From Nostocales cyanobacterium (GTDB taxonomy: Bacteria; Cyanobacteriota; Cyanobacteriia; Cyanobacteriales; Nostocaceae), in NCBI GenBank assembly GCA_004292695.1, contig RDXV01000016.1, forward strand, positions 1 to 64,000: a stretch of 64,000 nt of DNA. The letters are read 5' to 3'. Below, piece after piece: positions 1 to 15,219 of this stretch; the stretch's first letter is position 1; the number at the start of each line of letters is the position of its first letter. The notes below the pieces were generated by a model. It was given only the letters and a program-made list of their open reading frames with translations, searched no databases and was not told where the DNA came from. Made by a program: the position numbers and the translations under genes.

Positions 1-303
1 TGTTGCTTGCTTACCTTCAGTTGGGTCTTGAATCCTAGTAGCATAATTGTATTTTACAGCCAAAGAAGCACACATAACAAGAGCCGATGACTTTAACTGA
101 CAGCATAAGTAGGCAATTGTTAGTAATTGTTAGCTTTTGGCTTACTGTTAATTAACCCCATCACCCTATCTTTTCCTGACTCCTGTTTAAAAAAACTTAG
201 AGAATTGTTTTGGCGATCGCATTTTTGGTGCGAAGTGATATATATAGGGACAATCATAAAATTCCCTTACTGCAAATCACATTATAAGGATTAATTTTTT
301 ACC
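1..303. other. intergenic region upstream of moeA
   Basis: No convincing reading frame or RNA gene is visible. There is one HIP1 octamer (GCGATCGC) at 213-220, the over-represented cyanobacterial motif. The AT-rich stretch just before 304 presumably holds the moeA promoter, but no clear -35/-10 pair can be assigned. Confidence 0.5.
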
Positions 304-1527
304 ATGCTGTCAGTCAGAGATGCAGAAGCCACTATTTTAAATGCTGTGAAACCCCTGGATAACCAACTAGATGTGGAATTCGTAGATTTGCTGATGGCGA
401 ATAACCGCATTTTAGCAACTCCTGTGATCAGTTCCTTGAATTTTCCCCATTGGGATAATTCGGCGATGGATGGTTACGCTGTGCGTTATGCAGATTTACA
501 GTATGCTAGGTCTGATCAACCAGTGGTTTTGGAAGTTGTGGAAGAAATTCCCGCAGGTTATCAACCCCTGGTGACTATTCAACCAGGTCAAGCAGCACGT
601 ATTTTTACGGGTGGTGTGATGCCTAATGGTGCTGATACTGTGGTGATGCAGGAGAAAACCCACCGCCAAGATCACCGGGTGTTAATTTTTATTCCTCCTC
701 AACCCCAAGAGTTTGTGAGACATAAGGGGGACTTTTATCAAGCTGGTACGGAATTATTACCTGGTGGTATTACTTTGAATGCTACAGAAATTGCCATTTT
801 AGCGGCTGCTGGCAGGGAGCAGGTAGGGGTTTTCCGTCGTCCAAAGGTAGCAATTTTTTCTTGTGGTAATGAATTGGTGATGCCGGAACAGCTACTGCAA
901 CCAGGACAAATTGTAGACTCTAATCAGTTTGCTTTGGCTACTTTGATGCGAGAATGGGGAGCGGAAGTAATATTACTGGGCATTGTTCAGGATGATCCGG
1001 CAACTTTAAAAGAAATTATAGATTATGCGATCGCCAATGCTGATATTGTGATTTCTACAGGTGGTGTATCCGTTGGTGATTATGACTACATTGGTAGAAG
1101 TTTAAAGTCTCTGGGCGGTAAGGTACATTTTCAATCTGTCCAAATGCGTCCGGGAAAACCCTTAACTTTTGCTACTTTCCCAAATTGTTTATACTTTGGT
1201 TTACCAGGAAATCCTGTATCTGCGCTGGTAACTTGTTGGCGGTTTATCAAACCTGCAATTAAAAGAATGGCGGGACTTTCCCAAGGTTGGGGAGGAAATT
1301 ATTTCAGGGTGCGATCGCAATCTCAATTACAATCTAATGGGAAAATGGAAACTTATATATGTGGTAAGTTATACTTAGCAAATGGTAGTTATCATTTCCA
1401 AGCATCCCCAGGTAGCGACAATTCGGGTAATTTAGTCAGTTTGGCACAAACTAACGCCTTAGCAGTTATTCCAGTTGGACAAACCTTGGTTTCTCCCGGT
1501 GAGGAAGTGGTGGTGTTGCAACCATAG
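304..1527 (+). CDS. moeA: molybdopterin molybdenumtransferase MoeA
   Basis: MoeA inserts molybdate into adenylylated molybdopterin, the last step of cytosolic molybdenum cofactor synthesis, needed for example by nitrate reductase. The 407-residue length is normal for the family. The N-terminal half has the MoeA signature HWDNSAMDGYAV and the GGVMPNGADTVVMQE block. The central MoCF-binding domain shows STGGVSVGDYDY and PGKPLTFA, followed by GLPGNPVSA. The C-terminal beta-barrel domain is complete. The ATG follows an AT-rich leader with no strong Shine-Dalgarno sequence. No other cofactor genes adjoin it here, so it appears to be transcribed alone. Confidence 0.95.
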   Translation: MLSVRDAEATILNAVKPLDNQLDVEFVDLLMANNRILATPVISSLNFPHWDNSAMDGYAVRYADLQYARSDQPVVLEVVEEIPAGYQPLVTIQPGQAARIFTGGVMPNGADTVVMQEKTHRQDHRVLIFIPPQPQEFVRHKGDFYQAGTELLPGGITLNATEIAILAAAGREQVGVFRRPKVAIFSCGNELVMPEQLLQPGQIVDSNQFALATLMREWGAEVILLGIVQDDPATLKEIIDYAIANADIVISTGGVSVGDYDYIGRSLKSLGGKVHFQSVQMRPGKPLTFATFPNCLYFGLPGNPVSALVTCWRFIKPAIKRMAGLSQGWGGNYFRVRSQSQLQSNGKMETYICGKLYLANGSYHFQASPGSDNSGNLVSLAQTNALAVIPVGQTLVSPGEEVVVLQP

Positions 1528-1610
1528 GAGATCAAGGAGTCAGGAGATAGAGGAGATCGAGGAGTTAAAGAGAATAAAGAACTAATTTTTCACCCCATCA
1601 CCCCATCACC
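1528..1610. repeat. degenerate GGAG-containing tandem repeat and CCCCATCA repeat
   Basis: Directly after moeA there are imperfect copies of an (A)GGAGATCA / GGAGTCA unit and then two CCCCATCA units. The layout fits the short tandem repeats typical of intergenic DNA in filamentous cyanobacteria. A related block (CAAGGAGTT, TAGGAGTT) follows the next gene. Confidence 0.6.
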
Positions 1611-1616
1611 CGCTCC

Positions 1617-1645
1617 TTGACAAAATAGTATATTTGTACTACTAT
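1617..1645 (+). promoter_or_regulatory. sigma-70-type promoter with embedded dyad for the 92-residue gene
   Basis: TTGACA at 1617-1622 and TACTAT at 1640-1645 are separated by exactly 17 bp, a near-consensus vegetative promoter. A dyad, TAGTA-N6-TACTA, fills the spacer and reaches the -10 hexamer. A repressor bound there would block polymerase, so an autoregulatory or local operator is plausible but inferred. Confidence 0.6.
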
Positions 1646-1683
1646 AAATTCATCGCCTCCAAGCTGTAAACGACATTTGGAAG

Positions 1684-1962
1684 ATGGACGCAAATTCTAT
1701 GATGAAACACTATATTCTCAATCTTAATCCCACCGCCAAACATGAATGGGATCGTTGTATTGTAAGAGATCCGCTGACTGCAAAACGTCCAGATATAGCA
1801 AAACTCATTGCTGAAGCAGTAGGAGAGACTACCGGAAGTTATTTAGTCAGTGTAAATATTGAAGTCAAGGTATTAGAAGAAGCAGCTACACAACAAACAG
1901 AACAACTATCACTACCGATATCTGAAGTAAATATACCTTCACAGATACGGGAAGCAGCTTAA
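1684..1962 (+). CDS. small hypothetical protein (92 aa)
   Basis: I do not recognise the family. The protein is soluble with no signal or membrane segment, a basic N-terminal half (KHYILNLNPTAKHEWDR) and an acidic, Gln-rich tail. The start at 1684 has GGAAG only a few bases upstream; ATG codons at 1699 and 1702 are alternatives. The strong promoter with a dyad upstream suggests a real, possibly regulated gene. It sits between moeA and the accessory island whose first gene (parA) runs towards it. Confidence 0.55.
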   Translation: MDANSMMKHYILNLNPTAKHEWDRCIVRDPLTAKRPDIAKLIAEAVGETTGSYLVSVNIEVKVLEEAATQQTEQLSLPISEVNIPSQIREAA

Positions 1963-2058
1963 TATCAAGGAGTTCAAGGAGTTCTAGGAGTTCTAGGAGT
2001 CAGGAGAATAAAGAACTAATTTTTCTCCCTCTCCCCCCTATTCCCTATTCCCTATTCC
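1963..2058. repeat. tandem heptamer/nonamer repeat (AGGAGTT and TTCCCTA types)
   Basis: Copies of (C/T)AAGGAGTT / CTAGGAGTT are followed by four or more TTCCCTA heptamers reaching the stop of parA. Such short tandemly repeated sequences mark intergenic spacers of heterocystous cyanobacteria. The block lies between two converging genes. No hairpin terminator was identified. Confidence 0.75.
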
Positions 2059-2958
2059 CTATTCCCTATTACTTAGTAATTTCTGTAGTAATTCCTGTGT
2101 TAATTGTATGAATGCTTTAGCACCTGCGGAAGTTGGACTCATTAAAGAAACAGGCATAAAACTATCAACAGCTTTGGCTACATTGACATCTACAGGTATT
2201 TGAGCTTGACAGATAGTTTCTACACCAAAATCTTCGACTACACGGTGCATTACTTGTTTATAATATCTGCCAGTTAATAAATTATTGTTGCACATACTAA
2301 AAACAATTCCCAACATTTTAGTGTTTATTTTTGCTTCATGTTCGTGGCTATCTTTTAACTTGGCGATGCGTCTTTCTAATAATTGAATTCCCACCACAGA
2401 TAAAGGTTCTGGTTTAGCGGGAAGTACATAAAAATCGCTAGTTGCTAAAGCGCTCCGAGTCATGAGATTATAACCAGGGGCGCAGTCTAGGAGAATAAAA
2501 TCATATTGATCACGGACTGGTTTTAAAATATCTCTAATTAACACTCTTTCAAAACGATTCCAGATTGTTTCAAAATCACTTTCTCCCAAGGCTACAGCTT
2601 GGTTATGTAGCATTTCCGAGACGACAAATTCATCATATAAATCTATATCTCCTGGTAATAAATCTAGTCCTGGAAGTTTACATAACTGTGGTTCAATGAT
2701 GTCATTAATGTTTAATTTTGATTCTGGTTCTGGGTTAATTACTTCATCTATTAAATATCTAAAGGTTTTTCTTTGTTTGCGACGTTTGGCAAATTCTAGG
2801 GGTGACATTAAGCTGAGGGTAGCACTAATTTGACTATCTAAATCGAGAACAAGTACCTTTTTTCCGTGATTTTGTGCTAAACAGGTGGCTAAGTTAACGG
2901 TGAGTGTGGTTTTACCGACTCCACCTTTCATGTTTGCGGTTGCAATTACATATCCCAT
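2059..2958 (-). CDS. ParA/MinD-type partitioning ATPase
   Basis: This is a deviant-Walker P-loop ATPase of the ParA/Soj class, which forms nucleotide-dependent dimers on DNA and positions cargo such as plasmids, chromosomes or protein complexes. The deviant Walker A KGGVGKTT is at residues 11-18. LVLDLDSQ follows as the switch I/A' region, and FILLDCAPG is the Walker B region. Length (299 aa) fits the family. No parB or parS-like repeat is visible beside it. It is the last of several minus-strand genes beginning near 12.4 kb, about 170 bp after the nuclease-FtsK gene, so it may act with that system or be a relic of a plasmid-derived island. Its cargo cannot be told from sequence. Confidence 0.85.
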   Translation of the reverse strand: MGYVIATANMKGGVGKTTLTVNLATCLAQNHGKKVLVLDLDSQISATLSLMSPLEFAKRRKQRKTFRYLIDEVINPEPESKLNINDIIEPQLCKLPGLDLLPGDIDLYDEFVVSEMLHNQAVALGESDFETIWNRFERVLIRDILKPVRDQYDFILLDCAPGYNLMTRSALATSDFYVLPAKPEPLSVVGIQLLERRIAKLKDSHEHEAKINTKMLGIVFSMCNNNLLTGRYYKQVMHRVVEDFGVETICQAQIPVDVNVAKAVDSFMPVSLMSPTSAGAKAFIQLTQELLQKLLSNRE

Positions 2959-3128
2959 TTTTATTTCCTCTGCTGACGCATTCCCATTAATGTAGCGTAA
3001 ATATTATCTAATAAATTTTCACTTTGGCTAATTTATTCTTTTGGTAGATGCGAGAATGTGCTTTAAGATATTATTTCCCATTTAGACAGCTAATGTATAC
3101 AGATTTTCCGAGAAGTAGGGGTTGTTTG

Positions 3129-5756
3129 TTAAGGTAGTCGAATCGTTTTCACGAATAAACTTTGTAAGCGATGTAACTGAAAACCGACTTTATAAAGTAA
3201 ATCACCTTTACCTAATAGATATGCTGCGTCTATTTCTGTTCCACCTAAAACAATTTTAGAATCTGCTTCGCTGGAGGTACGTAAAGCAATTCTTCCGGGT
3301 AAATTTGAGCGAATAATAGGGGTAACAATACCCGCTTCTGGACGTTGGGTAGCAATAATTAAATGTATTCCTGCTGCTCTTGCCATTGCACCTAAACGTT
3401 TGATACTTTGTTCTAATACGGTGCGAATTTCTTTTTCTGCCATAAAATCACCATATTCATCAAAAATACAGACTATTCGGGGTAAAGGTTGGGAAGATTT
3501 TTGATTATAAACTTTTAAATCTGTACATTTATTTTTTTCAAATTTTTGATAGCGAGATTCCATTTCTATCACTAATTCTTCCATTAATTCGATTGCGCTT
3601 TCACTATCTTTAACTACTGGTGAATATAACCAGGGATTTTGTTCAAAATCTGGAAATGTTACTCTTTTCGGATCAACTAGGGCAATTTTTAGATGTTGGG
3701 GAGAATGACGGTATAGTAAACTGAGAAGTAAGGATCTCAAAAATTCACTTTTACCGCTGCCGGTTGTTCCTCCTACTAAAAAATGACAAGTATTCGGATC
3801 AGATAAATCAGCTTCTAATAAATTACCATCAATACCTATTCCTACAGCAATTTTAACAGGTGTATTTGCTGGTAAAAACTGCTTTTGAATATAATCTTCA
3901 AATTTAGCAATTTGTCTATCTTTGCGTGGTAAATCAACACTCACATAACCAGCTTGGGGAGCAATTAAAGGGGGATTTTCTAAACCTAATTGTACTTGTA
4001 AATCAGCAGATAATTTTAAAATTGCCGGAACTTTTACCCCTAAATGGGGTTTAATTTTCACCCGAATAAATGCTGGACTGATATCAGCCCCATGATAATC
4101 CACATTAACTTTAAAAGATGCTAGAGTCGTAACTAAAGATTCCCCAATTTCATCAGCATTAATAGTTGGTAAATTCTCCACCTTTTCTAAGGGGGGTTGG
4201 GGGGGATCAGATTCCCCAATTTCATCAGTATTAATAGTTGGCTTAGTTATCAACAGATCACATATATCTATCATTTTATCTATACATTGACTCAAAGAAA
4301 CTTTAGTATCAAAAAAAGTCTGACACTTTTGTTGTTGAGGACAAATTTCACATAAATGGGGTTGAGTTGTTGCAGGTGGTGGGTTAGGGTTGGGAGATTC
4401 CCATTTTAACCATTCCTGCATTTGTAATAGTTTGTAGGGAATTAATTGATGAACAGTATTTTCTAATTGTTCCCAGGAATATTGATAATCTTTAAACTCA
4501 GGTAACACACAATAAACCGCAGAATCTACCGCAGATTTTTTCTTTTGAGATAACATATAACTATATAAAGAAACCTGTGCTAACTGTGCTGCGGGATCTA
4601 CAGGTTGATAGGTTTTAAACTCTATCATACACAGGCGTTTAACTTCAAAATTAAAGACTAAACAATCAAATTCACCTCTAACTAATTGCTTGGTATGATC
4701 AGGTAAGTTAAAATAATATTCTAAAGTTCTTTCTTCTTGAATAAAAGTATTTTTAATTACTGTATCAGCACTACAATAACGCCGATTAATAATTAATAAT
4801 TCAGTGAGTTTTTTAATTAATCCTTGTATTCCTTGCCAAATTTGTAATAATGCAGGTGCTTTACTGTCATCTTGACTGATAATATTTTGTAAATAAGGGA
4901 AGAATTTAATAGTATAAAATAGTTGTTGAATATTTGATGATATTTGATCTAAATTTAGGCGATTTGCATCAGCAGTAAATAAAGATTTAATTTTGGGGTT
5001 AATCAATAGTAATTGTATCAAATCATCGGCTAATTTATGAAAAACATTACCAATACCGGAAATAGAATTTTTAGGAAAAAATATAGCTTTATCATCAAAA
5101 TGATGGTTGAGATAAAATAAACGCGGACATTCAAACGCTACTCTAACTTTAGTTGGTGTTAAAGATGAATTTTCAGATTTATTATTTACCATATTAAAAA
5201 TCTCATTAATAGCTTGAGGGTGAGATATTTGTAGTAAGCGACGATGGACAGCAGCTAAATAAACTGTATCCATTGCTGCGTATTTTAACTGTTTTTGAGT
5301 GAGAGGGCGTTTTCCCCAGTCACTTGTTCCTTCTTCTGCATCTACATCAGAAAATTGACAAAGTTCTACAGCTAAGGTTTTCAGTTTTAAATTACTAACT
5401 AGCAGTTTTTCACGGGTAATTTTTCTCGATAATTGGTATGTACAAATAATATTTTCTGCTAAGTTTTTACCTAAGTATTTTAAATCAAATCCAGAGTTAT
5501 GAAAAACCTTAGCAATTTCTGATTTTGCCATGATTTGATTGATAAAATAATCTATCAAATCTGGTTTATCTAAAACATCTAAAATGATAGCATCTTTACC
5601 AGTTAAGTCTTGAGAATTAGCCAATACTTGAATTAATGATAATCTGGGGTAGGGAGTATTCCAATCAGCAATTTCTGTATCTATCCATAGGGTTTTGTAT
5701 TGGGATAGTTGGGAAATTTGCTGATATATTTCCGCATCTTTTGTAAGGTAGTGCAT
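3129..5756 (-). CDS. RNase D-like exonuclease / Cas4-AddB-like nuclease / FtsK motor fusion
   Basis: Three modules are visible in one 875-residue chain. Residues 1-175 are a DEDDy 3'-5' exonuclease: D26 and E28 (WIDTE), D91 (HNSGFDL), and Y159-x3-D163 (YAAMD). Residues about 200-480 look like a Cas4/AddB-type PD-(D/E)XK nuclease: LTPTKVRVAFECPRLFYL at the start, an IEFK catalytic motif near 377, and three closing cysteines (CEICPQQQKC, near 470) that with the first Cys could bind a 4Fe-4S cluster. Residues about 600-875 are an FtsK/SpoIIIE ATPase with Walker A GTTGSGKS near 662 and Walker B VCIFDEYGD near 763. Known family chemistry suggests end processing coupled to DNA translocation. The combination is unfamiliar to me. 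The gene lies downstream of the ATPase at 5883-7925, with a hairpin in the 126-bp gap. Confidence 0.8.
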   Translation of the reverse strand: MHYLTKDAEIYQQISQLSQYKTLWIDTEIADWNTPYPRLSLIQVLANSQDLTGKDAIILDVLDKPDLIDYFINQIMAKSEIAKVFHNSGFDLKYLGKNLAENIICTYQLSRKITREKLLVSNLKLKTLAVELCQFSDVDAEEGTSDWGKRPLTQKQLKYAAMDTVYLAAVHRRLLQISHPQAINEIFNMVNNKSENSSLTPTKVRVAFECPRLFYLNHHFDDKAIFFPKNSISGIGNVFHKLADDLIQLLLINPKIKSLFTADANRLNLDQISSNIQQLFYTIKFFPYLQNIISQDDSKAPALLQIWQGIQGLIKKLTELLIINRRYCSADTVIKNTFIQEERTLEYYFNLPDHTKQLVRGEFDCLVFNFEVKRLCMIEFKTYQPVDPAAQLAQVSLYSYMLSQKKKSAVDSAVYCVLPEFKDYQYSWEQLENTVHQLIPYKLLQMQEWLKWESPNPNPPPATTQPHLCEICPQQQKCQTFFDTKVSLSQCIDKMIDICDLLITKPTINTDEIGESDPPQPPLEKVENLPTINADEIGESLVTTLASFKVNVDYHGADISPAFIRVKIKPHLGVKVPAILKLSADLQVQLGLENPPLIAPQAGYVSVDLPRKDRQIAKFEDYIQKQFLPANTPVKIAVGIGIDGNLLEADLSDPNTCHFLVGGTTGSGKSEFLRSLLLSLLYRHSPQHLKIALVDPKRVTFPDFEQNPWLYSPVVKDSESAIELMEELVIEMESRYQKFEKNKCTDLKVYNQKSSQPLPRIVCIFDEYGDFMAEKEIRTVLEQSIKRLGAMARAAGIHLIIATQRPEAGIVTPIIRSNLPGRIALRTSSEADSKIVLGGTEIDAAYLLGKGDLLYKVGFQLHRLQSLFVKTIRLP

Positions 5757-5783
5757 TGACTGAAATATAGATTATGGGTGATA

Positions 5784-5848
5784 AGATCCCCGACTTCTTT
5801 TACAATCATTTTAATAAATTAAAAATTAAGTGCAGAAGTCGGGGATCT
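5784..5848. repeat. dispersed hairpin repeat, 15-bp perfect arms
   Basis: AGATCCCCGACTTCT at 5784-5798 is answered by its exact reverse complement at 5834-5848, around a 35-bp AT-rich loop. The same arm core recurs at 38897-38929 after an unrelated gene. It is therefore a dispersed palindromic repeat, not a gene-specific terminator, although it could attenuate transcription between the ATPase and nuclease-FtsK genes. Confidence 0.75.
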
Positions 5849-5882
5849 GAGTATTAAAAATTGCTATAAATGAATGCTTACA

Positions 5883-7925
5883 TTATATTTGAGGATTCCA
5901 AGAAATTAACTGATCTTGTAATTTTGCTTTTGGGTTCATAATCTTAGCTTTCCTTTCCTGACATAATAGGTCAATTAACATTTTAATGTCAGTTTCTTGA
6001 ACATCAGAAAATTGATTAGATGCTTGAGAAATTAATGTAGGTACTCCCATAAATCCTTGAGTTTTGATGAGATTTAAGATAAAATCTTTTACAGGTCTGT
6101 AATCTTTTCTCTCTTTGATGATTGGATCTGGTTCTGGTTGAGAAACGAGACCTAAATCATGTAATAAAGTACATTGTTTATGCAAGATTTGAGATTGACG
6201 TATTAAAGATTCTAGTCCTTGTACATTAATCGTTTTCCCACCAATTACTAATTCTTGAGATTTGGCAGAATTGACGAAACTTTGGTATGTTGCCAAATAA
6301 TGAACTGCTGTTAGACTTGGTTTGATGTGTTGGTGATGAGTGTTTGTAAAAATCTGCCTATAAAGTTGATTTCCTGCAAGATTTGGTTTTCCTACATTTC
6401 CAGCGCGAATTAAATAAAGAGTTTTACAGCTATTGTTCTGAATTACATTTTTACAAGCATTCATAACATGAAAAAAAGTATTCATGCTAGAATCTTCTGT
6501 CCAGACTATTCCTACTCTTTCTTGTTTGTGAGACTGCTGATAACTCAAGGAATAAGTAGCATATCTTCCAGTTAAAAGTTTAGGTTTAATTCCCTGGATT
6601 TGTAAAGCTGATAGAGATTGTTGTAACATCTGCATTAAGTCAGATGAGGATAACAGAGATAATTTTGTAATTTTACTTTGAATTTTGCTATATTCTTTCT
6701 GCCATAGTAATTCAAATTCTGCTTGAATTGTATCTGTATTATTAGTATGTTCTGACTTTCCGTCATTGGTAGTTCTAGTTCGTAAACCTTCTTTATATTT
6801 TTGATATTCGTCCCGACCTAAAACTAATACATTTCTAGGTTTAGTTTTACCACCAGGATAATTTTTTTCTAGAATTTGCCTACTCAGCGGAAAAATAGAA
6901 GATTCAGGTTTGGAATTTGCTAATTGATGTAATGGTTTGAGGTGATAGTTCCAAAGTGATTCTGCTTGTTCTATAGTAATATCTTTTAACTTAATCTCTC
7001 TTTCTATTCGAGCTTTATCCGCTCTGAAAATCCGATCAAAATTGCGATTCCACGTTTGTGTGATTACACTTATAATAATTAAAAAATTTTTTAGATTATC
7101 TGCATGAAAACTTGTATTAACATTAAAAAAAGGTTGTACATCTAAAAAACCTTCAGGTGAATGGGGCATACTGTCAAAGTTATCAAAACATAAAACAATT
7201 GGTTGGGTCTGTGTGGAAATTCTGCCAAAATTTGTTAAAATGTTTTTTGCTGCATCTTCCGTATCAATGCAGTTTTTAACTTTTATTGCTTTCATTGATT
7301 CTTCACTTAAATCATCTCCTCGCAACCATTCGCAAGCTGTATCATATAATTCGGGATTTGCTAAATCATGCAGCACGCCAAAAAAGATATCAGGGTTATA
7401 GATACCTGCTTTTTGATAGGTATATTTGAGATGTTTAATAAATCTTTGGCGATTACTTTGTAATGCTTCCCAAAAATTATCATTAAATATTATTTTTGTG
7501 ATATCACTTCTGGTAAAAGCTGATAAACTTTTTAGCCACAACATCAATTGTGATTCTTTTTCACCTTCAGGAATTTGAATTAAACTATCAACTGTATGGC
7601 GTAAAATATGCCGCCAAATATAGTTACTATCAGGCCAATTACATAATATATATACGAAGAATGCTTTGCTATTTAAGGTACGTTTAAGCCGACCTAATAA
7701 ATAGCTTTTCCCAGACCCAGGTTCACCTTCTAGCGAAATTGTACGACTACGATGATCCATACTTAATAACTTGAGTAAATCTTCAATCTGAATTATTACA
7801 TCTTGATGAATTGACTCAACTATTAGGGATGAATCTTGCTTATCAGCCCAGAAATTAGTAGCTGCCAAATTTATCAAGTCAAAAGGATTGACTTCGCGTT
7901 TAATGATATTGTTTATGTCTGTCAT
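5883..7925 (-). CDS. P-loop ATPase of the accessory island (copy 1, intact Walker B)
   Basis: This 680-residue ATPase of an unrecognised family has Walker A GEPGSGKS at 67-74 and a Walker B-like IVLCFDNFD ending in D248. A conserved middle (WLRGDDL near 200) and a C-terminal half (YATYSLSYQ, GIVWTED, VHYLATYQS) match a second copy at 10397-12445. The last 60 residues resemble a winged helix. The reading frame is open back to 7955, but I start at 7925 (MTDINNIIKREVNPFD) because the paralogue begins MQSIDDIILRNINPFD. The arrangement recalls loader-type ATPases feeding an FtsK/HerA-like motor; that role is inferred. Its neighbours on the same strand are the winged-helix-like gene upstream and the nuclease-FtsK gene downstream. 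Confidence 0.7.
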   Translation of the reverse strand: MTDINNIIKREVNPFDLINLAATNFWADKQDSSLIVESIHQDVIIQIEDLLKLLSMDHRSRTISLEGEPGSGKSYLLGRLKRTLNSKAFFVYILCNWPDSNYIWRHILRHTVDSLIQIPEGEKESQLMLWLKSLSAFTRSDITKIIFNDNFWEALQSNRQRFIKHLKYTYQKAGIYNPDIFFGVLHDLANPELYDTACEWLRGDDLSEESMKAIKVKNCIDTEDAAKNILTNFGRISTQTQPIVLCFDNFDSMPHSPEGFLDVQPFFNVNTSFHADNLKNFLIIISVITQTWNRNFDRIFRADKARIEREIKLKDITIEQAESLWNYHLKPLHQLANSKPESSIFPLSRQILEKNYPGGKTKPRNVLVLGRDEYQKYKEGLRTRTTNDGKSEHTNNTDTIQAEFELLWQKEYSKIQSKITKLSLLSSSDLMQMLQQSLSALQIQGIKPKLLTGRYATYSLSYQQSHKQERVGIVWTEDSSMNTFFHVMNACKNVIQNNSCKTLYLIRAGNVGKPNLAGNQLYRQIFTNTHHQHIKPSLTAVHYLATYQSFVNSAKSQELVIGGKTINVQGLESLIRQSQILHKQCTLLHDLGLVSQPEPDPIIKERKDYRPVKDFILNLIKTQGFMGVPTLISQASNQFSDVQETDIKMLIDLLCQERKAKIMNPKAKLQDQLISWNPQI

Positions 7926-7982
7926 AAATAAAATTTGGTGAGAGGATGAACTCATGAAAAAATGAAATACTCTGAAAAATTG

Positions 7983-8840
7983 TTAATTCACTATTATGAA
8001 AAATAGTGAACCACCAATATTTTGAGGAATACCAGCATCAATTTGTTCTGGGGTGTAAGCAATAGGTTCTTGTAAAGAACTTAAATCTATTTTGTCATTT
8101 CTTTGCAACCTATACAAAGCCTGATCTAATTCATCTCTTGATAAAGGTGGTTGTAACTTTTCTCGCAGATGAAAAATAGGCAAATAATTCTCTGTACCCA
8201 GTTCCCGATCTAATTTTTTAATAGTCTCTAAAATCTGTTCATCACTGGGTTTGCTGATGGTTTCTATTTCTGATTTTTCAATGGTAGATAATACAGAAGT
8301 AACTGTTTCTGAATGACGTAAATTTTTGCGTAAAAATCGGAGATAATTACCCAATAAATCTAAACTAATAACAGGATTGTTACTTTGATTGGGAATAAAT
8401 TCATCACGCAAAAATTCAATTCCCCTTGCAGTTAACCACACTTCAGCTTTGACTCTTTTCATTTTGATTTCTACATCAATCAAACCCCTTCCACTCAATA
8501 CTGTTAATATCGCTTCTCGTTCATCTGATTTCAAACCAGAAACTTTAATTTCACTGGGGGCAATTTTTTTAGAACTTTTACCGATTTTTTCTAATACTTT
8601 GAGTTCTTTATCACTAATGGGTAACTGACTGGAATCTAATTTTAATAACGCCTGGCCAGCATCTAAAATCTTGACTGTGGCAATTTCACGGGAATATTCT
8701 ACCAGTTGGCGATCGCCCAAATCTCGGCAAATTTTGTTTTTCTCTTTTTTAAAGGAATCAAAAATACTGGAACTTAACCCAGCCCGGTAGTTAGGACATC
8801 CCAATAGTTTTAATACAAATTTAAGCTCTTTAGTATCCAT
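7983..8840 (-). CDS. winged-helix-like protein of the ATPase/FtsK island
   Basis: This is a 285-residue soluble, charged protein. The central part (AILTVLSGRGLIDVEIKMK then VWLTARGIEFL) looks like a winged helix with a two-strand wing. Near the C terminus, LSRDELDQALYRLQRNDKI looks like a second one, and the protein ends with a hydrophobic IGGSLFFIIVN. I start at the ATG at 8838-8840 (MDTKELKFV) because the in-frame extension to 8942 is hydrophobic and unlike the rest. It would be the first gene of a three-gene set followed by the ATPase (start 7925) and the nuclease-FtsK gene. It could be an adaptor, a DNA-binding subunit or a regulator. I know no family name for it. Confidence 0.6.
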   Translation of the reverse strand: MDTKELKFVLKLLGCPNYRAGLSSSIFDSFKKEKNKICRDLGDRQLVEYSREIATVKILDAGQALLKLDSSQLPISDKELKVLEKIGKSSKKIAPSEIKVSGLKSDEREAILTVLSGRGLIDVEIKMKRVKAEVWLTARGIEFLRDEFIPNQSNNPVISLDLLGNYLRFLRKNLRHSETVTSVLSTIEKSEIETISKPSDEQILETIKKLDRELGTENYLPIFHLREKLQPPLSRDELDQALYRLQRNDKIDLSSLQEPIAYTPEQIDAGIPQNIGGSLFFIIVN

Positions 8841-9058
8841 GAATTTGATATTTATGAATGTTAACCAAGAATAATCCCAGGTTAAACAAAGAAAAATTGA
8901 CACTCGTTTATTATAGTAACTCCAACGAGTGCCACTTTTCACTAAATATCATGCAAATTTTTAATTACTGCATTCTGACGTACCTATGTAATGATCTTGA
9001 CGAAGCTAATTAATTGTTAACTCCCATAGTATGGGAATTAATCTTAAAAGAAACTGTT

Positions 9059-10168
9059 TTAATTATCTGAGAAAACTTCAGATTTGACGACTTCCAGATA
9101 AGATTTACCAAACTCTCGATCTGGTTCAAGATAGTTACCTTCAGCCCATTCATTCCATGACTTAACAAATATCAATTTTTCTTGATCAGGTTTGGTAGCA
9201 ACTAAATTCAAAGCATCTCTTAAATGATTTCTAAACAATTCAGGAGTAGAATCTTTGTAGACTACCCCATTAGCTTGACTACGTGGTGTATTATCCCAAT
9301 TGGGAAGTACACTGGGCAGAAAATTACTTTGAGGAGGTACTTTGGGAAATGCGTATTTAATGACTTCGCTGTATTCATAAATTCTAGGAATAGAAAAATT
9401 CTCTCTCAAAATTTCCTGTAAATCTTTCCCTACCATTTTATATAAAATCTTACTAATTAATGGCTTGGGAATACGTCTTAAATTTTCTGATGGAGCTTGG
9501 CTTGTGAAACCATCAAAACCATCACTTTTATGATCCCAATTTTCATTCATAACAATGCCTACAAAATAAATTCCTGGCAGTCCAGCTTTGTCGGCAAGTT
9601 CACGCCAATAGTCTGTAAATTCTCTTTTGTTTGGTAATTGATCTGGCTTAAAGACTACAAACAGCGGTTTACCATCTACTTTAATATAACGGTCATCTGT
9701 AAATGCTGGTAACACACTATTAAAATGAGCTTCATAATCTTCTTTACCTGGGTATAGTTGCTGAATCAAAGTTGTATTAGGAGAACCATACCAAATTCCC
9801 GTCCAACTATCATTTGCCCAAGCAAGACAGAAGGGAAAATTTGGCTCACCTGATTTCAAAACCTCGTTAAAAGGTCTTTCTAATATTCGTTTACCATTAC
9901 CAAACCAGTAGTGCCAGTAACAAAATCCTTCAATCCCATACTCACGCGCTATTTCTGCCTGTGCTATACGAGTTTCTGGGACTCGCAGATCATAAAATCC
10001 TAAATCAGCAGGTAAACGTGGTTGATAGTGACCTGGGAATAAGGGTTTAGCTTTTGTGACATTTGTCCACTCAGTAAATCCCTTACCCCACCATGTATCA
10101 TTTTCAGGAATAGGATGATATTGAGGAAGATAAAAGGTCAGTAATCTTGCTTTCTTTTTTATATCCAT
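9059..10168 (-). CDS. WbsX-like glycoside hydrolase/glycosyltransferase-type protein
   Basis: The protein opens with LLTFYLPQYHPIPENDTWWG and continues with GFTEWTNV, IEGFCYWHYWF and CLAWANDSW. These are typical of the WbsX family, related to glycoside hydrolase family 99 and usually found in O-antigen or exopolysaccharide loci. The C-terminal FVKSWNEWAEGNYLEPD motif is also characteristic. From the ATG at 10166-10168 it is 369 residues. In-frame ATGs at 10213 and 10291 would add residues unlike the family, so the shorter start is preferred. It sits between the two ATPase paralogues and fits better with the glycosyltransferases at 12.6-14.9 kb than with the nuclease genes. Confidence 0.8.
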   Translation of the reverse strand: MDIKKKARLLTFYLPQYHPIPENDTWWGKGFTEWTNVTKAKPLFPGHYQPRLPADLGFYDLRVPETRIAQAEIAREYGIEGFCYWHYWFGNGKRILERPFNEVLKSGEPNFPFCLAWANDSWTGIWYGSPNTTLIQQLYPGKEDYEAHFNSVLPAFTDDRYIKVDGKPLFVVFKPDQLPNKREFTDYWRELADKAGLPGIYFVGIVMNENWDHKSDGFDGFTSQAPSENLRRIPKPLISKILYKMVGKDLQEILRENFSIPRIYEYSEVIKYAFPKVPPQSNFLPSVLPNWDNTPRSQANGVVYKDSTPELFRNHLRDALNLVATKPDQEKLIFVKSWNEWAEGNYLEPDREFGKSYLEVVKSEVFSDN

Positions 10169-10396
10169 GATCTTAAACACAGGTTTGTCGTAATTGTTGA
10201 GCAGTATATTCATTTTGGTAACATTTAACAAGTGGTTACGACAATAAACCGGATAAATAACAATGGCTGTCAACAATTGCTCTAAATCCAATTAATCTGA
10301 AAATAAAAAAATTCTACTTTGCAAATTAAATTTAGGTAAAAGTTGCATAAATTATCATATTATTAAGTTCATCTGAATATTTTAAATGCCACTCAA

Positions 10397-12445
10397 TTAC
10401 TTCCCCGGAAACAAAACAACTAACTGTACAGAAGGATGCGCTTTCGGATCAATAATTTTAATCTTATTTTCCCAACATAATTGTTGAATTAAATTATCAA
10501 GCTGCAATTCACTCAAATGAGAAAATACACTAACTGCTTTCTGTAACAAAACCTGTCTACTTAAACAAGACTGAGTAATAACTAAATTAAATATATAATC
10601 CTTAGCATTTTTTACATCTATATGTTTTTTGATGGGTTTGAATACATTCATCTCACCACGAGAATCATAATTTTTATCATCAATATTAACTGGGTTTTTA
10701 ACTATTCCTAAATCCTGCAACAAATCACAATCATCTAAAATTCTAGTTGCAGCAATCAAAGATTGTAAATTCCTTAAACTAATCACTTTACTACCAACCA
10801 CTAAATCACCTTCTCGCGCAGTTTTTACCAAACTGTGATAAGTAGCTAAATAGTGTACAGAATCTAAACTAGGAATAATATAACGATGTTGTGGTTTCAG
10901 AAAAATATCTTGATAAACTTGATAACCGCGACTTTGAGAACTACTTAAATCTTGAGAACGAATGAGAATTAACTTTAAAGAAGGATTTTTTTCTAAGGTT
11001 TTTCTACAAGCTTCCATAGCATAGAAAAAACTTTCTGAATTTTCATCTTCTGTCCACACGATACCAATATTTTGTTCCGTATTTGGAAGTTGATAACTTA
11101 ATGAATAACTCGCATATTTACTTCTGATAAATAATGATGTTGCCACTTCTTTGATACCAAATAATAATAAAACATCTTGCAATATTTGAATTAATTCTGT
11201 AGATGATAATTTATGTATTTTTGAAATTTGTTGTTGAATTTGTGAAAATTCTTCATACCATCTCACCTTAAAGTAATAAGTGATATCTAATTTATCTTGA
11301 ATATTTTTATGTAAATTAAAATCTGTTTTTTGTTCATCTCTTAATAACCATTTTTTATAAGCATTAAATACACTTTTTCCATATATACTTACATCCCTAA
11401 AATTCATTCTCCCTATAGGAAAGGATCTCTCTAAAAATTGACGATTTAATGGATATAAAGGAGAACTTGGTAAAGATTTTGCTTGTTTATGTAAAGATTC
11501 TAACCTAGATCCTAACATTAACTCTGCTTGGGCTAAACTTACATCTTTTAATTCTATTTCTTGATCAATACTCTCTGGATATAATTTTTGAATATCCTCT
11601 TGATATTCTTGCCAACGATGACTATTAATACTGAAAATAATGACTATATTTTGATTATCTTCTCTGATTTTAGCATTTATTTGAAATAAAGCATCTAAAT
11701 CTAATCTACCGTTGGGTAATTTAGGCAAACTTTCTAAATGATAAAAACAAATAATTATAGGTTGAATTTCACAAGTAATGATACTTAAATTAGTTAATGT
11801 TTCTCTAGCTGTTGTTTCTGTATTTATAGACTTTTCTACTCCTAAACTTTTTAAAGATTCTGCTGCTAAGTCATCACCACGTAAATACCTAATAGCTAAC
11901 TCATATAATTCTGGGGTAGTTAATTCATATAAAATACTAAAAAAATCATCAGCATTGTGAATTTTGACTTTTTTATATTTTTCCTTCATTTTGCTGATAA
12001 AGTTTTGTTTATCACTTTTAAAAAAATTCAACAATTTATCTTTCTCTTCTTTAATTTTTGATAAATATAATAATAACGGTGAAGTTATTTTCTCATTTTT
12101 TGGTTTTACTAAACTGTCAACTGTATAGCGTAAAATTCGCCTCCAAATACTATCTCTTTTCGCAAATGGAGGAATTTTTACAAAAAAACTTTTATAGTTT
12201 AATTTAATTTTTAAACTGTTTAATAAGTAAGTTTTACCACAACTACTATCCCCAGTGATTAATGCTGTTCTTGTGATATGATCCTGTAAATTTTGACTTA
12301 ATAATGTTTCAATTTTGATAAATGTTTCTTGGTGAAGATAACTAATTGTTGATTGTTCTTCAAGATTGTGATTAATAAATTCAGGACAATAAAAATTGTC
12401 AAAGGGGTTAATATTCCGCAAAATAATATCATCAATGGACTGCAT
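10397..12445 (-). CDS. P-loop ATPase paralogue (copy 2, degenerate Walker B)
   Basis: This 682-residue protein is collinear with the ATPase at 5883-7925: the same NPFD start, IWRRILRYTVDSLV, YLRGDDL, YASYSLSYQ, GIVWTEDE and VHYLATYHS blocks. Walker A is kept as GDSSCGKT (65-72). The Walker B strand, however, reads IIICFYHLE, with Tyr235 where copy 1 has the acidic D248. It may therefore bind but hydrolyse ATP poorly, perhaps as a regulatory partner in a hetero-oligomer; this is inference. The sequence is more AT-rich and Lys/Asn-rich than copy 1, suggesting faster divergence. It is separated from copy 1 by the winged-helix-like and WbsX genes. The start is supported by alignment with the paralogue. 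Confidence 0.7.
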   Translation of the reverse strand: MQSIDDIILRNINPFDNFYCPEFINHNLEEQSTISYLHQETFIKIETLLSQNLQDHITRTALITGDSSCGKTYLLNSLKIKLNYKSFFVKIPPFAKRDSIWRRILRYTVDSLVKPKNEKITSPLLLYLSKIKEEKDKLLNFFKSDKQNFISKMKEKYKKVKIHNADDFFSILYELTTPELYELAIRYLRGDDLAAESLKSLGVEKSINTETTARETLTNLSIITCEIQPIIICFYHLESLPKLPNGRLDLDALFQINAKIREDNQNIVIIFSINSHRWQEYQEDIQKLYPESIDQEIELKDVSLAQAELMLGSRLESLHKQAKSLPSSPLYPLNRQFLERSFPIGRMNFRDVSIYGKSVFNAYKKWLLRDEQKTDFNLHKNIQDKLDITYYFKVRWYEEFSQIQQQISKIHKLSSTELIQILQDVLLLFGIKEVATSLFIRSKYASYSLSYQLPNTEQNIGIVWTEDENSESFFYAMEACRKTLEKNPSLKLILIRSQDLSSSQSRGYQVYQDIFLKPQHRYIIPSLDSVHYLATYHSLVKTAREGDLVVGSKVISLRNLQSLIAATRILDDCDLLQDLGIVKNPVNIDDKNYDSRGEMNVFKPIKKHIDVKNAKDYIFNLVITQSCLSRQVLLQKAVSVFSHLSELQLDNLIQQLCWENKIKIIDPKAHPSVQLVVLFPGK

Positions 12446-12584
12446 GATAATTTTCTCCTAACTTACTTTGTTTTACTAACAAAAGTAGATACTATGAATA
12501 TTAGCCCTGAATCACTTTTTTAGTTTATGATCTAATTAAGATGAGATTATATTTTAATTTAACTGTCATTGTAGAATTTTTCAG

Positions 12585-13571
12585 CTAAACTCCAGATTTT
12601 CTCACCTGTTCTGTATAATCTTGGGGACGAAGTTGACGAAAAGTTTGTAAAGCTAAGTTTCTTAAACTCTGGGGTAAATAAGATAAAGTCAACCCCATTA
12701 ATGTTTTATTGTTGTTACCTAAAACCTGACTTGATGCTTGTAAAACTTTCCTTCCTTCTGCTGTATCTCCATTTTCAATTAACCTTAAACCTAAAATTTG
12801 TTGAGTACCTGCTAATTTTTGCAATCGCAATTTTTCTAACTCTAGATCATCAAATCTATAACTATCAATACAAAACACCTTAGCTTTCAAAAAATGCAAA
12901 TTTTGTTTTAAACTTGTCTGTCCACCATGAAACCGATATTCCATCAAATACTCAGGTAAAAAATACCCTTGTTTACCAGCAATAGCTAACCTCACCAACA
13001 AATCAAAATCCTCACATCCATCAGCTTGAGGACGCATAAAATCAACTTCTACTAAACAATTTCTTCTAAATAAAGTTGAACCTACCTGTAAACTTTGATT
13101 GATGAAAGTTTCCTTCACCAAATCATCAATTACACCATTCAACTTATCCTTTCCCCACTTCCGTGAATTCTCCAAAGTTGCAGATTCAATTCTTTCATTA
13201 TTTTGATTAATGATCCAATGATTTGTACACACAAAATCTATGTTTGCATTTACATCTAAAACCTTTACAGTTTTCTCTAAAAACTCCGGTGTAATAGCAT
13301 CATCATCATCAAATTTAATAAAATAATCCCCTGTTGCAGCTTCAAAACCAGAACGCATATTGCGACTACGGCCACCATTTACAGGTTGTCTAATATAACG
13401 AATTCTCGGATCATTCCATTTACTTACCACTTCCGTAGTGTTATCTGTAGAACCATCATCACAGATAATTAATTCAAAATCTGTGTATGTCTGATTTAAG
13501 ACACTATTAACAGCATAGGGAAGTAAACCTGCTCGGTTATAAGTGGGGATGCAAACACTAACTTTAACCAT
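12585..13571 (-). CDS. family 2 glycosyltransferase
   Basis: This GT-A fold glycosyltransferase transfers a sugar from a nucleotide-sugar, probably for extracellular polysaccharide or lipopolysaccharide. The N terminus is classic: VSVCIPTYNRAGLLPYAVNSVL, then IICDDGSTDNT, and the metal-binding FDDDD near residue 90. ADGCEDFDLLVRLA corresponds to the catalytic-base region. It has 328 residues and no membrane anchor. The start overlaps no neighbour, and the divergent glycosyltransferase at 13741 shares the 169-bp intergenic region. The acceptor cannot be predicted. Confidence 0.9.
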   Translation of the reverse strand: MVKVSVCIPTYNRAGLLPYAVNSVLNQTYTDFELIICDDGSTDNTTEVVSKWNDPRIRYIRQPVNGGRSRNMRSGFEAATGDYFIKFDDDDAITPEFLEKTVKVLDVNANIDFVCTNHWIINQNNERIESATLENSRKWGKDKLNGVIDDLVKETFINQSLQVGSTLFRRNCLVEVDFMRPQADGCEDFDLLVRLAIAGKQGYFLPEYLMEYRFHGGQTSLKQNLHFLKAKVFCIDSYRFDDLELEKLRLQKLAGTQQILGLRLIENGDTAEGRKVLQASSQVLGNNNKTLMGLTLSYLPQSLRNLALQTFRQLRPQDYTEQVRKSGV

Positions 13572-13740
13572 AGGAATTAAAACTTGTAGAAATACGCTAA
13601 TTCAAATAAATTTCCAACCCTGAGAGATTTGATGTCATTAAATCATTAAATCTTTACCCAGAATCTTAACTTATTTTAGTATATTATGTTATTGTTTACT
13701 CAATAAACTCCCAGATTTTACTGATAAATTTATTACATTT

Positions 13741-14949
13741 ATGAATATTCTCATGCTATCCTCCACCTTTCCCTACCCACCAACTAGGGGAGGTACTCAA
13801 GTGAGAACTTTTAATTTACTCAAATACCTAAGTCAAAATCATCATATCACCCTTCTTACTCAACGGGAGTCTGATGTTACAGATGCAGAAATATCAAGTT
13901 TACAAGAATGTGTTAATCAGTTAGTGGTTTTTGAACCTCCCGTAGCAGTATCAGGAGGAATACTGAAAAAAATCCAGCGTTTAAGTAACTTTTTGCTAAC
14001 TGGTACTCCCCCCAGTGTACTGAGTCGCTATTCTATAGAAATGCAAACATGGATTGACAATTTTCTGAAATCGGGTCAATGTGATCTAGTTACCTGTGAA
14101 CATAGTGTTAATGAAATTTACATTCGTCCTGAATTTAAAACTCATGTTAAAACTATGGTAAATATTCATAGTTCTGTATATGGAACTTGTCTCAATCAAT
14201 TAACAACCGGAACATCAGAAAATAAATTACGAGACAAAATTAACTTACCTTTATTGCGTCGTTATGAGCAAAATTATTGTGCTAAATTCAGCAAAATTGT
14301 AGTTACAACTTTAGAGGATAAACAACAAATCCAACAATTCCAACCAAATTCAGAAATAGCTGTAATTCCTAACGGTGTGGACTTGTTTACCTTTTCTAAA
14401 CGTTCTCAAGATCCAGGAGGACATCGGATAATTTTTATCGGTGCAATGGATAACTTAGCTAATATTGATTCTGTCTGTTTTTTCAGTAATCAAGTATTAC
14501 CAGAAATCCAAAAAATCTATCCTGATGCAACTTTCGATATTGTTGGTTCTCGTCCAGATCCAGCAGTTTTAGAACTGGGTAAAAAACCGGGAATTAATGT
14601 AGTTGGATCTGTTCCTTCTATGGCTGAATATTTACATAAATCTACGGTTTGTGTAGTACCTATGCGGACAGGTTTCGGAATTAAAAACAAAACCTTAGAA
14701 GCAATGGCCGCAGGTATACCAGTTGTGGGAAGTGATCGTGGGTTAGAAGGTTTGGATGCAGATGGCATTAACACACCACTACGAGCCTTGAGAGCAAATA
14801 AACCCGCAGAATATGTAGAAGCTATTTCTCGCATATTTGCACAACCACAATTGAGACATCAACTGTCTGTAAACGCTCGACAAATGATCGAAACCCAGTT
14901 TACCTGGGAAATTGCAGGTCAGCTTTATGAGCAAATTTGCTTAAAATAA
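13741..14949 (+). CDS. family 4-type glycosyltransferase
   Basis: This is a GT-B fold retaining glycosyltransferase of 402 residues. The N-terminal domain begins MNILMLSSTFPYPPTRGGTQVR, the usual acceptor-side GG loop. The C-terminal nucleotide-sugar domain has AVIPNGVDL, FIGAMDNLANIDS and the closing EAMAAGIPVVGSDRGLEG block with the conserved Glu. It is divergent from the GT2 gene at 12585-13571. Together with the WbsX gene they suggest a small surface-glycan cluster. Confidence 0.9.
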   Translation: MNILMLSSTFPYPPTRGGTQVRTFNLLKYLSQNHHITLLTQRESDVTDAEISSLQECVNQLVVFEPPVAVSGGILKKIQRLSNFLLTGTPPSVLSRYSIEMQTWIDNFLKSGQCDLVTCEHSVNEIYIRPEFKTHVKTMVNIHSSVYGTCLNQLTTGTSENKLRDKINLPLLRRYEQNYCAKFSKIVVTTLEDKQQIQQFQPNSEIAVIPNGVDLFTFSKRSQDPGGHRIIFIGAMDNLANIDSVCFFSNQVLPEIQKIYPDATFDIVGSRPDPAVLELGKKPGINVVGSVPSMAEYLHKSTVCVVPMRTGFGIKNKTLEAMAAGIPVVGSDRGLEGLDADGINTPLRALRANKPAEYVEAISRIFAQPQLRHQLSVNARQMIETQFTWEIAGQLYEQICLK

Positions 14950-15006
14950 ATGTAATTTTGATAACAATAAATAAATCCAAAATGATCTTAAAAGGAGTAT
15001 CTAGTC

Positions 15007-15219
15007 ATGAGTAATTATGTTCATTGTCCCCGCAACCAAGTTACTCCCCATCTATATCCTGAACGCATTCAAGAAAAAAACCTCTGTGATTTTTGCTGGA
15101 ATGAATATTGCTTTTGCTGGTCAGAATACTTTATGAGTGAGTGGTATAAAATGCAGACAAACCATGATCAACAAAACAATCCTAAACTATCTGGCGATCG
15201 CTCATCTGAATCCAACTAA
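15007..15219 (+). CDS. small cysteine-rich hypothetical protein (70 aa)
   Basis: I do not recognise this protein. It contains CDFCWNEYCFCW (residues 27-38), with further C7 and H6, a spacing that could form a small metal site, and a hydrophilic Asn/Ser-rich tail. AAAGGAG at about 14990-14996 lies roughly 10 bp before the ATG, a good ribosome binding site, which argues that it is translated. It follows the glycosyltransferase by 57 bp on the same strand and may be co-transcribed. The long non-coding stretch after it ends at the PAS-CRP gene. Confidence 0.55.
   Translation: MSNYVHCPRNQVTPHLYPERIQEKNLCDFCWNEYCFCWSEYFMSEWYKMQTNHDQQNNPKLSGDRSSESN

What the first reader, a model, noticed from the sequence alone, without database searches (positions are those of the whole stretch)
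2059..8840. Candidate four-gene system: winged-helix-like protein, loader-type ATPase, nuclease-FtsK fusion and ParA ATPase
All four are on the minus strand in the order winged-helix-like, ATPase, nuclease-FtsK, ParA, with gaps of about 57, 126 and 170 bp. Three different P-loop ATPases with nucleases recall Dnd/Dpt restriction (DptF-DptG-DptH), but no dndBCDE modification genes and no BREX or DISARM markers are present. The composition suggests either modification-independent DNA sensing or a plasmid-partition-plus-immunity module.
Basis: inference. Interest (0 to 1): 0.75.

Follow-up and report, generated by a model that had tools for sequence, protein, structure and literature searches.

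The report
Cyanobacterial nuclease-translocase cassette beside ParA
Three neighbouring genes in a cyanobacterium look like a machine that grips and shreds foreign DNA, and the fourth gene reported with them is an ordinary neighbour that nearly all relatives keep whether or not they own the machine.

Summary
The four genes are real, co-directional and at the stated place. The system, however, is three genes: a multi-winged-helix protein, an Orc/Cdc6-type AAA+ ATPase, and an exonuclease/Fe-S nuclease/FtsK fusion. They stand together in 66 of 79 loci from named genomes. ParA is present in 116 of 118 genomes of the host family, while the ATPase is in 67. The module also occurs without this ParA, including on a conjugative plasmid. 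In a strain of the same genus the module plus one glycosyltransferase gene is replaced by another cassette, and the breakpoint falls between the FtsK gene and ParA. All catalytic residues checked are kept. The host has a full dndBCDE set elsewhere, but outside the host order carriers have DndC no more often than other genomes (3 of 31 against 19 of 225). The layout matches the Orc/CDC6-coupled 'HerA/FtsK capture' systems predicted in 2024, so this is a member of a predicted, untested kind. New here: within the family the module almost excludes a second cassette (restriction-nuclease/ParA fusion plus ParB-like protein) beside the same ParA, and its ATPase gene alone has been swapped between loci. 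The function, destruction of invading DNA, is inferred.

The parts
7983..8840 (-). Multi-winged-helix protein (285 aa): two MarR-like wHTH units (about residues 1-67 and 77-147) and a C-terminal wHTH (about 196-285); likely DNA-recognition subunit
   Evidence: AF2 model from 46 sequences, mean pLDDT 86.5, pTM 0.53; VIA-align Z about 10 to MarR family over residues 1-154, Z 8.4 (68 residues, rmsd 3.0) to the ScpA winged helix over 196-285; no Foldseek match at E<=0.001
5883..7925 (-). Orc/Cdc6-type AAA+ ATPase (680 aa from ATG 7925; 690 aa from ATG 7955, residue numbers here from 7955): AAA+ about residues 16-392, alpha/beta domain about 406-600 (candidate inactive REase insert), C-terminal wHTH about 620-690
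   Evidence: AF2 model from 48 sequences, pLDDT 87.8, pTM 0.89; Foldseek top hits Cdc6/Orc1 (1fnn 7.2e-5, 2qby 8.7e-5); VIA Z 13.8 to Drosophila ORC-Cdc6 chain 7jgr_G, 13.6 TnsC, 13.0 RdrA; Walker A Lys in 48 of 48, Walker B Asp in 46 of 48
5232..5756 (-). DEDDy 3'-5' exonuclease domain of the fusion (about residues 1-175)
   Evidence: PF01612 1.2e-23; nearest solved relatives diDNase ancestor 5.3e-11 and nanoRNase C 1.8e-8; D26, E28, D91, Y159, D163 in 23 of 23 sequences that have the domain, domain absent in 11 of 34
4317..5162 (-). PD-(D/E)XK nuclease domain (about residues 199-480) with four Cys placed as in Cas4/AddB-type Fe-S nucleases
   Evidence: PF12705 4e-8; D364, K381, Q394 in 34 of 34, E379 in 33 of 34 (one Asp), C210, C469, C472, C478 in 34 of 34; weak Cas4 model hits; the Fe-S reading of the Cys pattern is from memory of the Cas4/AddB literature
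3129..4160 (-). FtsK alpha and motor domains (about residues 533-870), ends without a gamma domain
   Evidence: PF17854 9.3e-8 and PF01580 2.5e-39, no FtsK gamma hit; PDB FtsK 2iuu 3e-45; PADLOC SspH C-terminus 7.5e-65; Walker A K669, Walker B D766 E767, Q804, R816, R822 in 34 of 34
2059..2958 (-). ParA ATPase, conserved chromosomal neighbour, judged NOT a component
   Evidence: One match at E<=1e-60 in each of 116 of 118 family genomes; the ATPase in 67 of 118
3064..10393 (.). Exchangeable cassette: module plus a WbsX-type glycosyltransferase gene (9059-10291); in same-genus locus L132 this place holds REase-ParA plus ParB-like genes instead
   Evidence: blastn of window 1-18000 against L132: collinear 304-3063 (84%), 10394-12554 (78%), 12586-15202 (81%), 15580-17995 (77%); the only match in between is a 231-base piece at 66%, which is the ATPase against its paralogue
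10397..12445 (-). Paralogue of the ATPase (682 aa, 39% identical), Walker B Asp replaced by Tyr; flanks the cassette; nearest relatives stand beside REase-ParA/ParB

Best explanation
A three-gene, modification-independent DNA-destroying module of the Orc/CDC6-coupled 'HerA/FtsK capture' type. Proposed working: the multi-winged-helix protein and the Orc/Cdc6-like ATPase, with its own C-terminal winged helix, assemble on a feature of invading DNA (replication, segregation or transfer intermediate). They then recruit the FtsK ring, which pumps DNA and feeds it to the two nucleases on the same chain, an Fe-S-type PD-(D/E)XK nuclease and, in most members, a DEDDy 3'-5' exonuclease. Shown here: gene order and conservation, domain identities, intact active sites, patchy presence with decay, cassette exchange, ATPase swapping, independence from ParA and from DndC. 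Inferred: complex formation, the trigger, the order of steps, and that the target is invading DNA.
For: Trio together in 66 of 79 loci, gaps median 55 and 24.5 bp. Orc/Cdc6 fold. All catalytic residues tested are kept. The FtsK part resembles that of SspH, 7.5e-65, and mad8, 6.1e-28, both from models of anti-phage systems. Layout matches the published description, including FtsK-alpha, fused 3'-5' exonuclease and multi-wHTH partner. Accessory behaviour: 67 of 118 family genomes and 45 of 291 class genomes; decayed remnants beside ParA in L139, L282 and L271, and a partial second FtsK-fusion copy in L279; clean exchange within a genus; on conjugative plasmid pPSE7367.01. The ATPase is the fastest-changing part (mean pairwise identity 0.60, against 0.80 for FtsK and 0.79 for ParA) and has been swapped alone: L218's ATPase rejects grouping with L040 (p-AU 1.05e-5), though FtsK groups them (support 95) and FastTree WH and ParA trees agree (0.89, 0.96).
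Against: No functional assay exists here. Defence-island context was inconclusive: of 90 neighbour proteins the commonest PADLOC family matched 3, of 90 control proteins 2. No relative in 50,697 phage records, none confirmed among viral contigs, and a single plasmid record, so mobility is modest. Pairwise identities of module parts and ParA correlate (r 0.45 to 0.78), which points to much vertical inheritance. Presence at one fixed chromosomal place in a family where 108 of 118 genomes hold this or the rival cassette could also mean a housekeeping role. The inactive-REase identity of the insert could not be confirmed.
Confidence: 0.65

Rival explanations
1. Host DNA-maintenance module: an alternative end-processing or chromosome-dimer/segregation machine (FtsK motor plus two nucleases) used with the neighbouring ParA in polyploid cyanobacteria, not a defence.
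For: Fixed place beside ParA in 47 of 65 family genomes that have both; co-oriented with ParA in 54 of 54; 108 of 118 family genomes hold this or the REase-ParA cassette; nucleases of Cas4/AddB type and DEDDy type are also repair enzymes (recalled).
Against: Absent from 51 of 118 family genomes and 246 of 291 class genomes; decayed remnants; plasmid copy; ATPase swapping.
Confidence: 0.2
2. Four-gene partition-plus-immunity system in which ParA is a working part.
For: ParA downstream and co-oriented in 54 of 54 loci with both, under 250 bp in 29; seen beyond the family too (G037, G054).
Against: ParA in 116 of 118 family genomes regardless of the module; 26 of 36 carriers outside the family lack it at E<=1e-60 and of the other 10 only 2 have it nearby; intervening ORFs in 16 of 54; exchange breakpoint excludes ParA; plasmid copy lacks it.
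Confidence: 0.08
3. Restriction arm of the host's phosphorothioate (Dnd) system, standing in for DndFGH.
For: Host has dndBCDE-type genes on C59; FtsK part resembles SspH; DndC in 115 of 118 family genomes.
Against: Outside the order 3 of 31 carriers have DndC against 19 of 225 non-carriers, Fisher p 0.74; the C59 locus has its own PT-DNA-type restriction protein, below that model's cut-off; G143 carries the ATPase with no DndC match.
Confidence: 0.05

Closest known systems
Orc/CDC6-coupled 'HerA/FtsK capture' systems (Rakesh, Aravind, Krishnan 2024, PMC10853773; sections 22 and 26 read)
   Same: Orc/CDC6 ATPase, extra domain before a C-terminal wHTH, nuclease, FtsK with FtsK-alpha, 3'-5' exonuclease fused to FtsK in some, multi-wHTH partner
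   Different: Their main text has no whole-word ParA and no 'cyanobacteri'; the four-Cys nuclease, the ParA-side site and the exchange with REase-ParA/ParB are not described in the parts I read; their supplementary data were not readable here
SspFGH (PMC8092258, passages read)
   Same: Three genes, an ATPase with Walker A and an FtsK-like protein; PADLOC SspH C-terminus matches the FtsK part at 7.5e-65
   Different: Only the last about 320 of 1766 SspH positions match; SspFGH works with sspBCD modification; no association with DndC here outside the host order (sspBCD not tested)
DndFGH / DptFGH
   Same: wHTH protein, ATPase and HerA/FtsK-type nuclease protein
   Different: No match to the dnd_assoc_2 model in the host genome, but that search rang in no control either; the domain make-up of DndH described in the paper is different
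Cas4/AddB-type Fe-S nucleases and nanoRNase C/diDNase exonucleases
   Same: Active-site and Cys pattern (pattern recalled); exonuclease domain nearest to diDNase ancestor and NrnC in the PDB
   Different: Here both are fused to an FtsK motor

Membership tests
Orc/CDC6-coupled HerA/FtsK capture system | AAA+ ATPase of the Orc/CDC6 clade | tested here: met
   Foldseek top hits Cdc6/Orc1, VIA Z 13.8 to ORC-Cdc6
Orc/CDC6-coupled HerA/FtsK capture system | Inactive REase inserted between AAA+ core and C-terminal wHTH | tested here: inconclusive
   An alpha/beta domain lies there and has no conserved (D/E)xK motif, but profile and Pfam searches of it found no meaningful match and it could not be folded alone
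Orc/CDC6-coupled HerA/FtsK capture system | Active nuclease domain of the REase superfamily | tested here: met
   PDDEXK_1 4e-8; D364, K381, Q394 in 34 of 34 and E379 in 33 of 34. Which of the paper's two REase families it belongs to was not tested
Orc/CDC6-coupled HerA/FtsK capture system | HerA/FtsK ATPase in the same operon | tested here: met
   PF01580 2.5e-39; 66 of 79 loci hold WH, AAA and nuclease/FtsK in order
Orc/CDC6-coupled HerA/FtsK capture system | Multi-wHTH partner related to DndG/SspB/FokI | tested here: inconclusive
   Several wHTH units seen; specific kinship to DndG/SspB not shown
Orc/CDC6-coupled HerA/FtsK capture system | FtsK domain falls in the published DndH-anchored clades | not tested
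   The published alignment was not available
SspFGH | Full-length SspH-like protein | tested here: not met
   Match limited to profile positions 1417-1739 of 1766
Dnd restriction arm | Co-occurrence with phosphorothioate modification genes | tested here: not met
   Outside the host order 3 of 31 carriers have DndC, odds ratio 1.16, p 0.74
Plasmid-partition-plus-immunity module with ParA | ParA restricted to carriers of the module | tested here: not met
   116 of 118 against 67 of 118 family genomes
Anti-phage defence system | Protection in a phage or plasmid assay | not testable with these tools
   needs bench work

The most novel reading that the evidence does not exclude
The ParA-side locus of this cyanobacterial family is a dedicated slot for one of two interchangeable nuclease-on-a-segregation-motor cassettes: wHTH plus Orc/Cdc6 plus nuclease-FtsK, or a restriction-type nuclease fused to ParA plus a ParB-like protein. 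Both would police DNA by the way it is segregated, with the resident chromosomal ParA as reference for self, which would extend 'FtsK capture' to a 'ParA capture'. Support: 108 of 118 family genomes hold at least one, 98 exactly one (Fisher p 4.6e-13), 12 genera hold both types in different species (genus tally read from its listing), and a clean swap is seen within one genus. The pattern could also be mere cassette exchange at a hotspot.
Probability: 0.22. Interest if true: 0.75.

Novelty: new member of a known kind. Interest (0 to 1): 0.5.

Why it matters
It gives a predicted but untested class of translocating restriction machines a concrete, naturally swapped locus in filamentous cyanobacteria, with near relatives that differ in the cassette ready for comparison. 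If the exclusion with the REase-ParA/ParB cassette is functional, it would link immunity to the recognition of how DNA is segregated.

Tried and rejected
ParA as a component: rejected on distribution and on the exchange breakpoint. Coupling to Dnd modification: over all 291 genomes there is an association (16 of 45 carriers, p 0.0012), but it comes from the host order and vanishes outside it (3 of 31, p 0.74). DndH in the host: no match to TIGR03237, but no control rang, so absence is not shown; SspBCD was not searched.

Phage origin: no match in phage records; 20 stretches in viral contigs matched patterns and none was confirmed. Defence-island test: PADLOC scan of 90 neighbours in 30 loci, most of them away from ParA (107 families matched), against 90 proteins from 18 of 20 arbitrarily placed stretches of carrier genomes (43 families); the output does not count proteins with any hit and the commonest families match 3 and 2 members, so I draw nothing from it. 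Insert domain as REase: no profile or Pfam support. DndG, SspB and FokI do not appear among the listed fold matches of the winged-helix model, which does not exclude them. A common replacement partner in the loci that lack FtsK: the downstream genes there look unrelated to one another.

The ATPase search at E<=1e-10 gave 56 of 291; 11 genomes with about 25% identity (a different family, beside a DUF1802 gene in the one locus scanned) were dropped to reach 45. The clades in the AU tests were chosen after seeing the trees. The exclusion test is not corrected for phylogeny beyond the within-genus tally; three paralogue-only genomes and three with fragments are in the 67, and without them the table is 7/54/44/13, p 1.7e-13. 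Four of the ten 'neither' genomes (G212, G315, G371, G386) still hold a distant REase-ParA (about 27-30% identity in tblastn) beside ParA. The scan of named genomes kept the best 80 of 243 relatives, all cyanobacterial, so spread beyond cyanobacteria is untested.

Papers: PMC10853773 outline, sections 22 and 26, and passages; PMC12839542 passages; PMC8092258 outline and passages; all others only as search listings. Searches that could have shown a REase-ParA/ParB cassette or an experimental test of this system listed none that I recognised as such.

Full report
What is there. The window is a contig of a cyanobacterial genome (G000:C69). The 126-bp gap between ATPase and FtsK holds an inverted repeat of a family seen at dozens of other places in the genome; in relatives this gap is usually short (median 24.5 bp).

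How conserved. The ATPase occurs in 45 of 291 genomes of the class at high similarity (after dropping 11 with about 25% identity) and in 67 of 118 genomes of the family (three of these are paralogue-only and three are fragments). A scan of named genomes found 243 relatives; the best 80 gave 79 loci, all cyanobacterial. Of these, 72 of 79 have the winged-helix gene within 400 bp upstream, 68 of 79 a nuclease/FtsK part within 600 bp downstream and 66 of 79 both. In the class sample of 46 loci (L039-L084), 29 have the nuclease/FtsK gene and 17 do not, some because of contig ends. Tandem ATPase pairs occur in L061, L062, L203-L207 and L219.

What the parts are. The ATPase model (48 sequences, pLDDT 87.8) is Orc/Cdc6-like: Foldseek puts Cdc6 and Orc1 first and VIA-align gives Z 13.8 to a chain of the ORC-Cdc6 complex, with the DNA-bound transposition ATPase TnsC at 13.6 and the defence ATPase RdrA at 13.0. 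Some alignments to Orc proteins span both the AAA+ part and the C-terminus (for example 2v1u_A, model 24-690, rmsd 14), with an extra alpha/beta domain in between that lacks a conserved (D/E)xK motif. The winged-helix protein has two MarR-like units and a third, C-terminal one. The fusion has a DEDDy exonuclease domain in 23 of 34 members, with all five active-site residues in 23 of 23; a PD-(D/E)XK domain with its active site and four Cys in a Cas4/AddB-like pattern (that pattern is recalled) in 34 of 34, save one Glu-to-Asp; and an FtsK motor with intact Walker motifs in 34 of 34. It has FtsK-alpha but no gamma domain hit.

ParA is a neighbour. It is found in 116 of 118 family genomes and 87 of 291 class genomes. 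In the family the ATPase lies within 12 kb of it in 47 of 65 genomes that have both, and in all 54 loci in hand with FtsK fusion and ParA, ParA is downstream on the same strand, though with ORFs in between in 16. But 36 of the 45 class carriers lie outside the family; 26 of these show no such ParA and of the other 10 only G037 and G054 have it nearby. The conjugative plasmid pPSE7367.01 carries the trio without ParA.

The exchange. Against L132, a stretch from the same genus, the window is collinear at 304-3063 and again from 10394 on, while 3064-10393 (module plus glycosyltransferase) corresponds to a 2.5-kb block with a restriction-nuclease/ParA fusion (HSDR_N_2 1.2e-5 and AAA_31 3.8e-54) and a ParB_N protein (3.2e-6). 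Across 118 family genomes this REase-ParA is in 51 and the ATPase in 67; both in 10, only the ATPase in 57, only REase-ParA in 41, neither in 10 (p 4.6e-13). REase-ParA lies within 12.5 kb of the same ParA in 40 of 51. In 12 genera different species hold one or the other (tally read from the listing). Both cassettes can coexist at the site (L129, L131), so exclusion is not simply physical. Remnants of the module beside ParA in L139, L282 and L271, and a partial second FtsK-fusion copy in L279, show decay. In the class sample the two overlap in G003, G008 and G205 only, of 45 and 68 carriers.

The ATPase moves alone. L218 is sister to L040 for FtsK, winged-helix and ParA proteins, but its ATPase groups with L211 (support 100); the ATPase data reject L218 with L040 (p-AU 1.05e-5) and the FtsK data reject L218 with L211 (p-AU 2.67e-6). 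The ATPase is also the most divergent component. This fits a recognition or sensor part under changing pressure, though it does not prove it.

The paralogue in the window. The ATPase at 10397-12445 has Walker B Asp replaced by Tyr. Its nearest relatives, L132, L133 and L075, stand beside REase-ParA and ParB, and two of the three have their own lesion (Asp to Asn in L132; Gly to Asn in Walker A of L075). In the window it looks like what is left of the former partner.

Modification. DndC is nearly universal in the family (115 of 118), and outside the order it is no commoner in carriers (3 of 31 against 19 of 225).

Known or new. Section 22 of PMC10853773 describes just this kind: Orc/CDC6 ATPase, inactive REase before a C-terminal wHTH, an active REase, HerA/FtsK sometimes with FtsK-alpha and sometimes with a fused 3'-5' exonuclease, and a multi-wHTH partner, proposed as anti-invader from comparative genomics. 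I file the locus as a member of that predicted kind, with the REase-insert and wHTH-kinship features unresolved. The ParA-side site, the exclusion with REase-ParA/ParB and the ATPase swapping are not in the parts of that paper I read; its supplement was not readable.

Noticed in passing
L132:6288-8398 (and L133, L136, L139, L140; absent from the host genome): A cassette of an HSDR_N-type nuclease fused to ParA (about 458 aa) plus a ParB_N protein (about 245 aa): 68 of 291 class and 51 of 118 family genomes, near the chromosomal ParA in 40 of 51, nearly exclusive with the module.
   Followed up: partly
window 10397-12445: Paralogous Orc/Cdc6-type ATPase with Walker B Asp to Tyr, related to ATPases that stand beside REase-ParA/ParB; probably a leftover partner.
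   Followed up: partly
window about 5775-5858: Inverted-repeat element (ends GATCCCCGACTTCT / AGAAGTCGGGGATC) between ATPase and FtsK genes, about 80% like dozens of other places in the genome.
   Followed up: no
window about 2020-2080: Short AATAGGG-type repeats at the 3' end of ParA, also present at many places in the genome.
   Followed up: no
window about 4140-4240: In-frame duplication of an INxDEIGES stretch in the linker between nuclease and FtsK parts.
   Followed up: no
G000:C59 (L121): dndBCDE-type genes with dnd_assoc_4 and a PT-DNA restriction protein; DndC is in 115 of 118 family genomes.
   Followed up: partly
L085-L093: A second, distant ATPase family (about 25% identity) in cyanobacteria; in L085 it lies between an unknown 222-aa ORF and a DUF1802 gene.
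   Followed up: no
L203, L204, L207: Winged-helix gene with two tandem ATPases facing ParB-like and REase-ParA genes, without FtsK.
   Followed up: no
window 48255-50326: A DnaK-like reading frame appears split into two ORFs (48255-48854 and 49013-50326): frameshift or assembly error.
   Followed up: no
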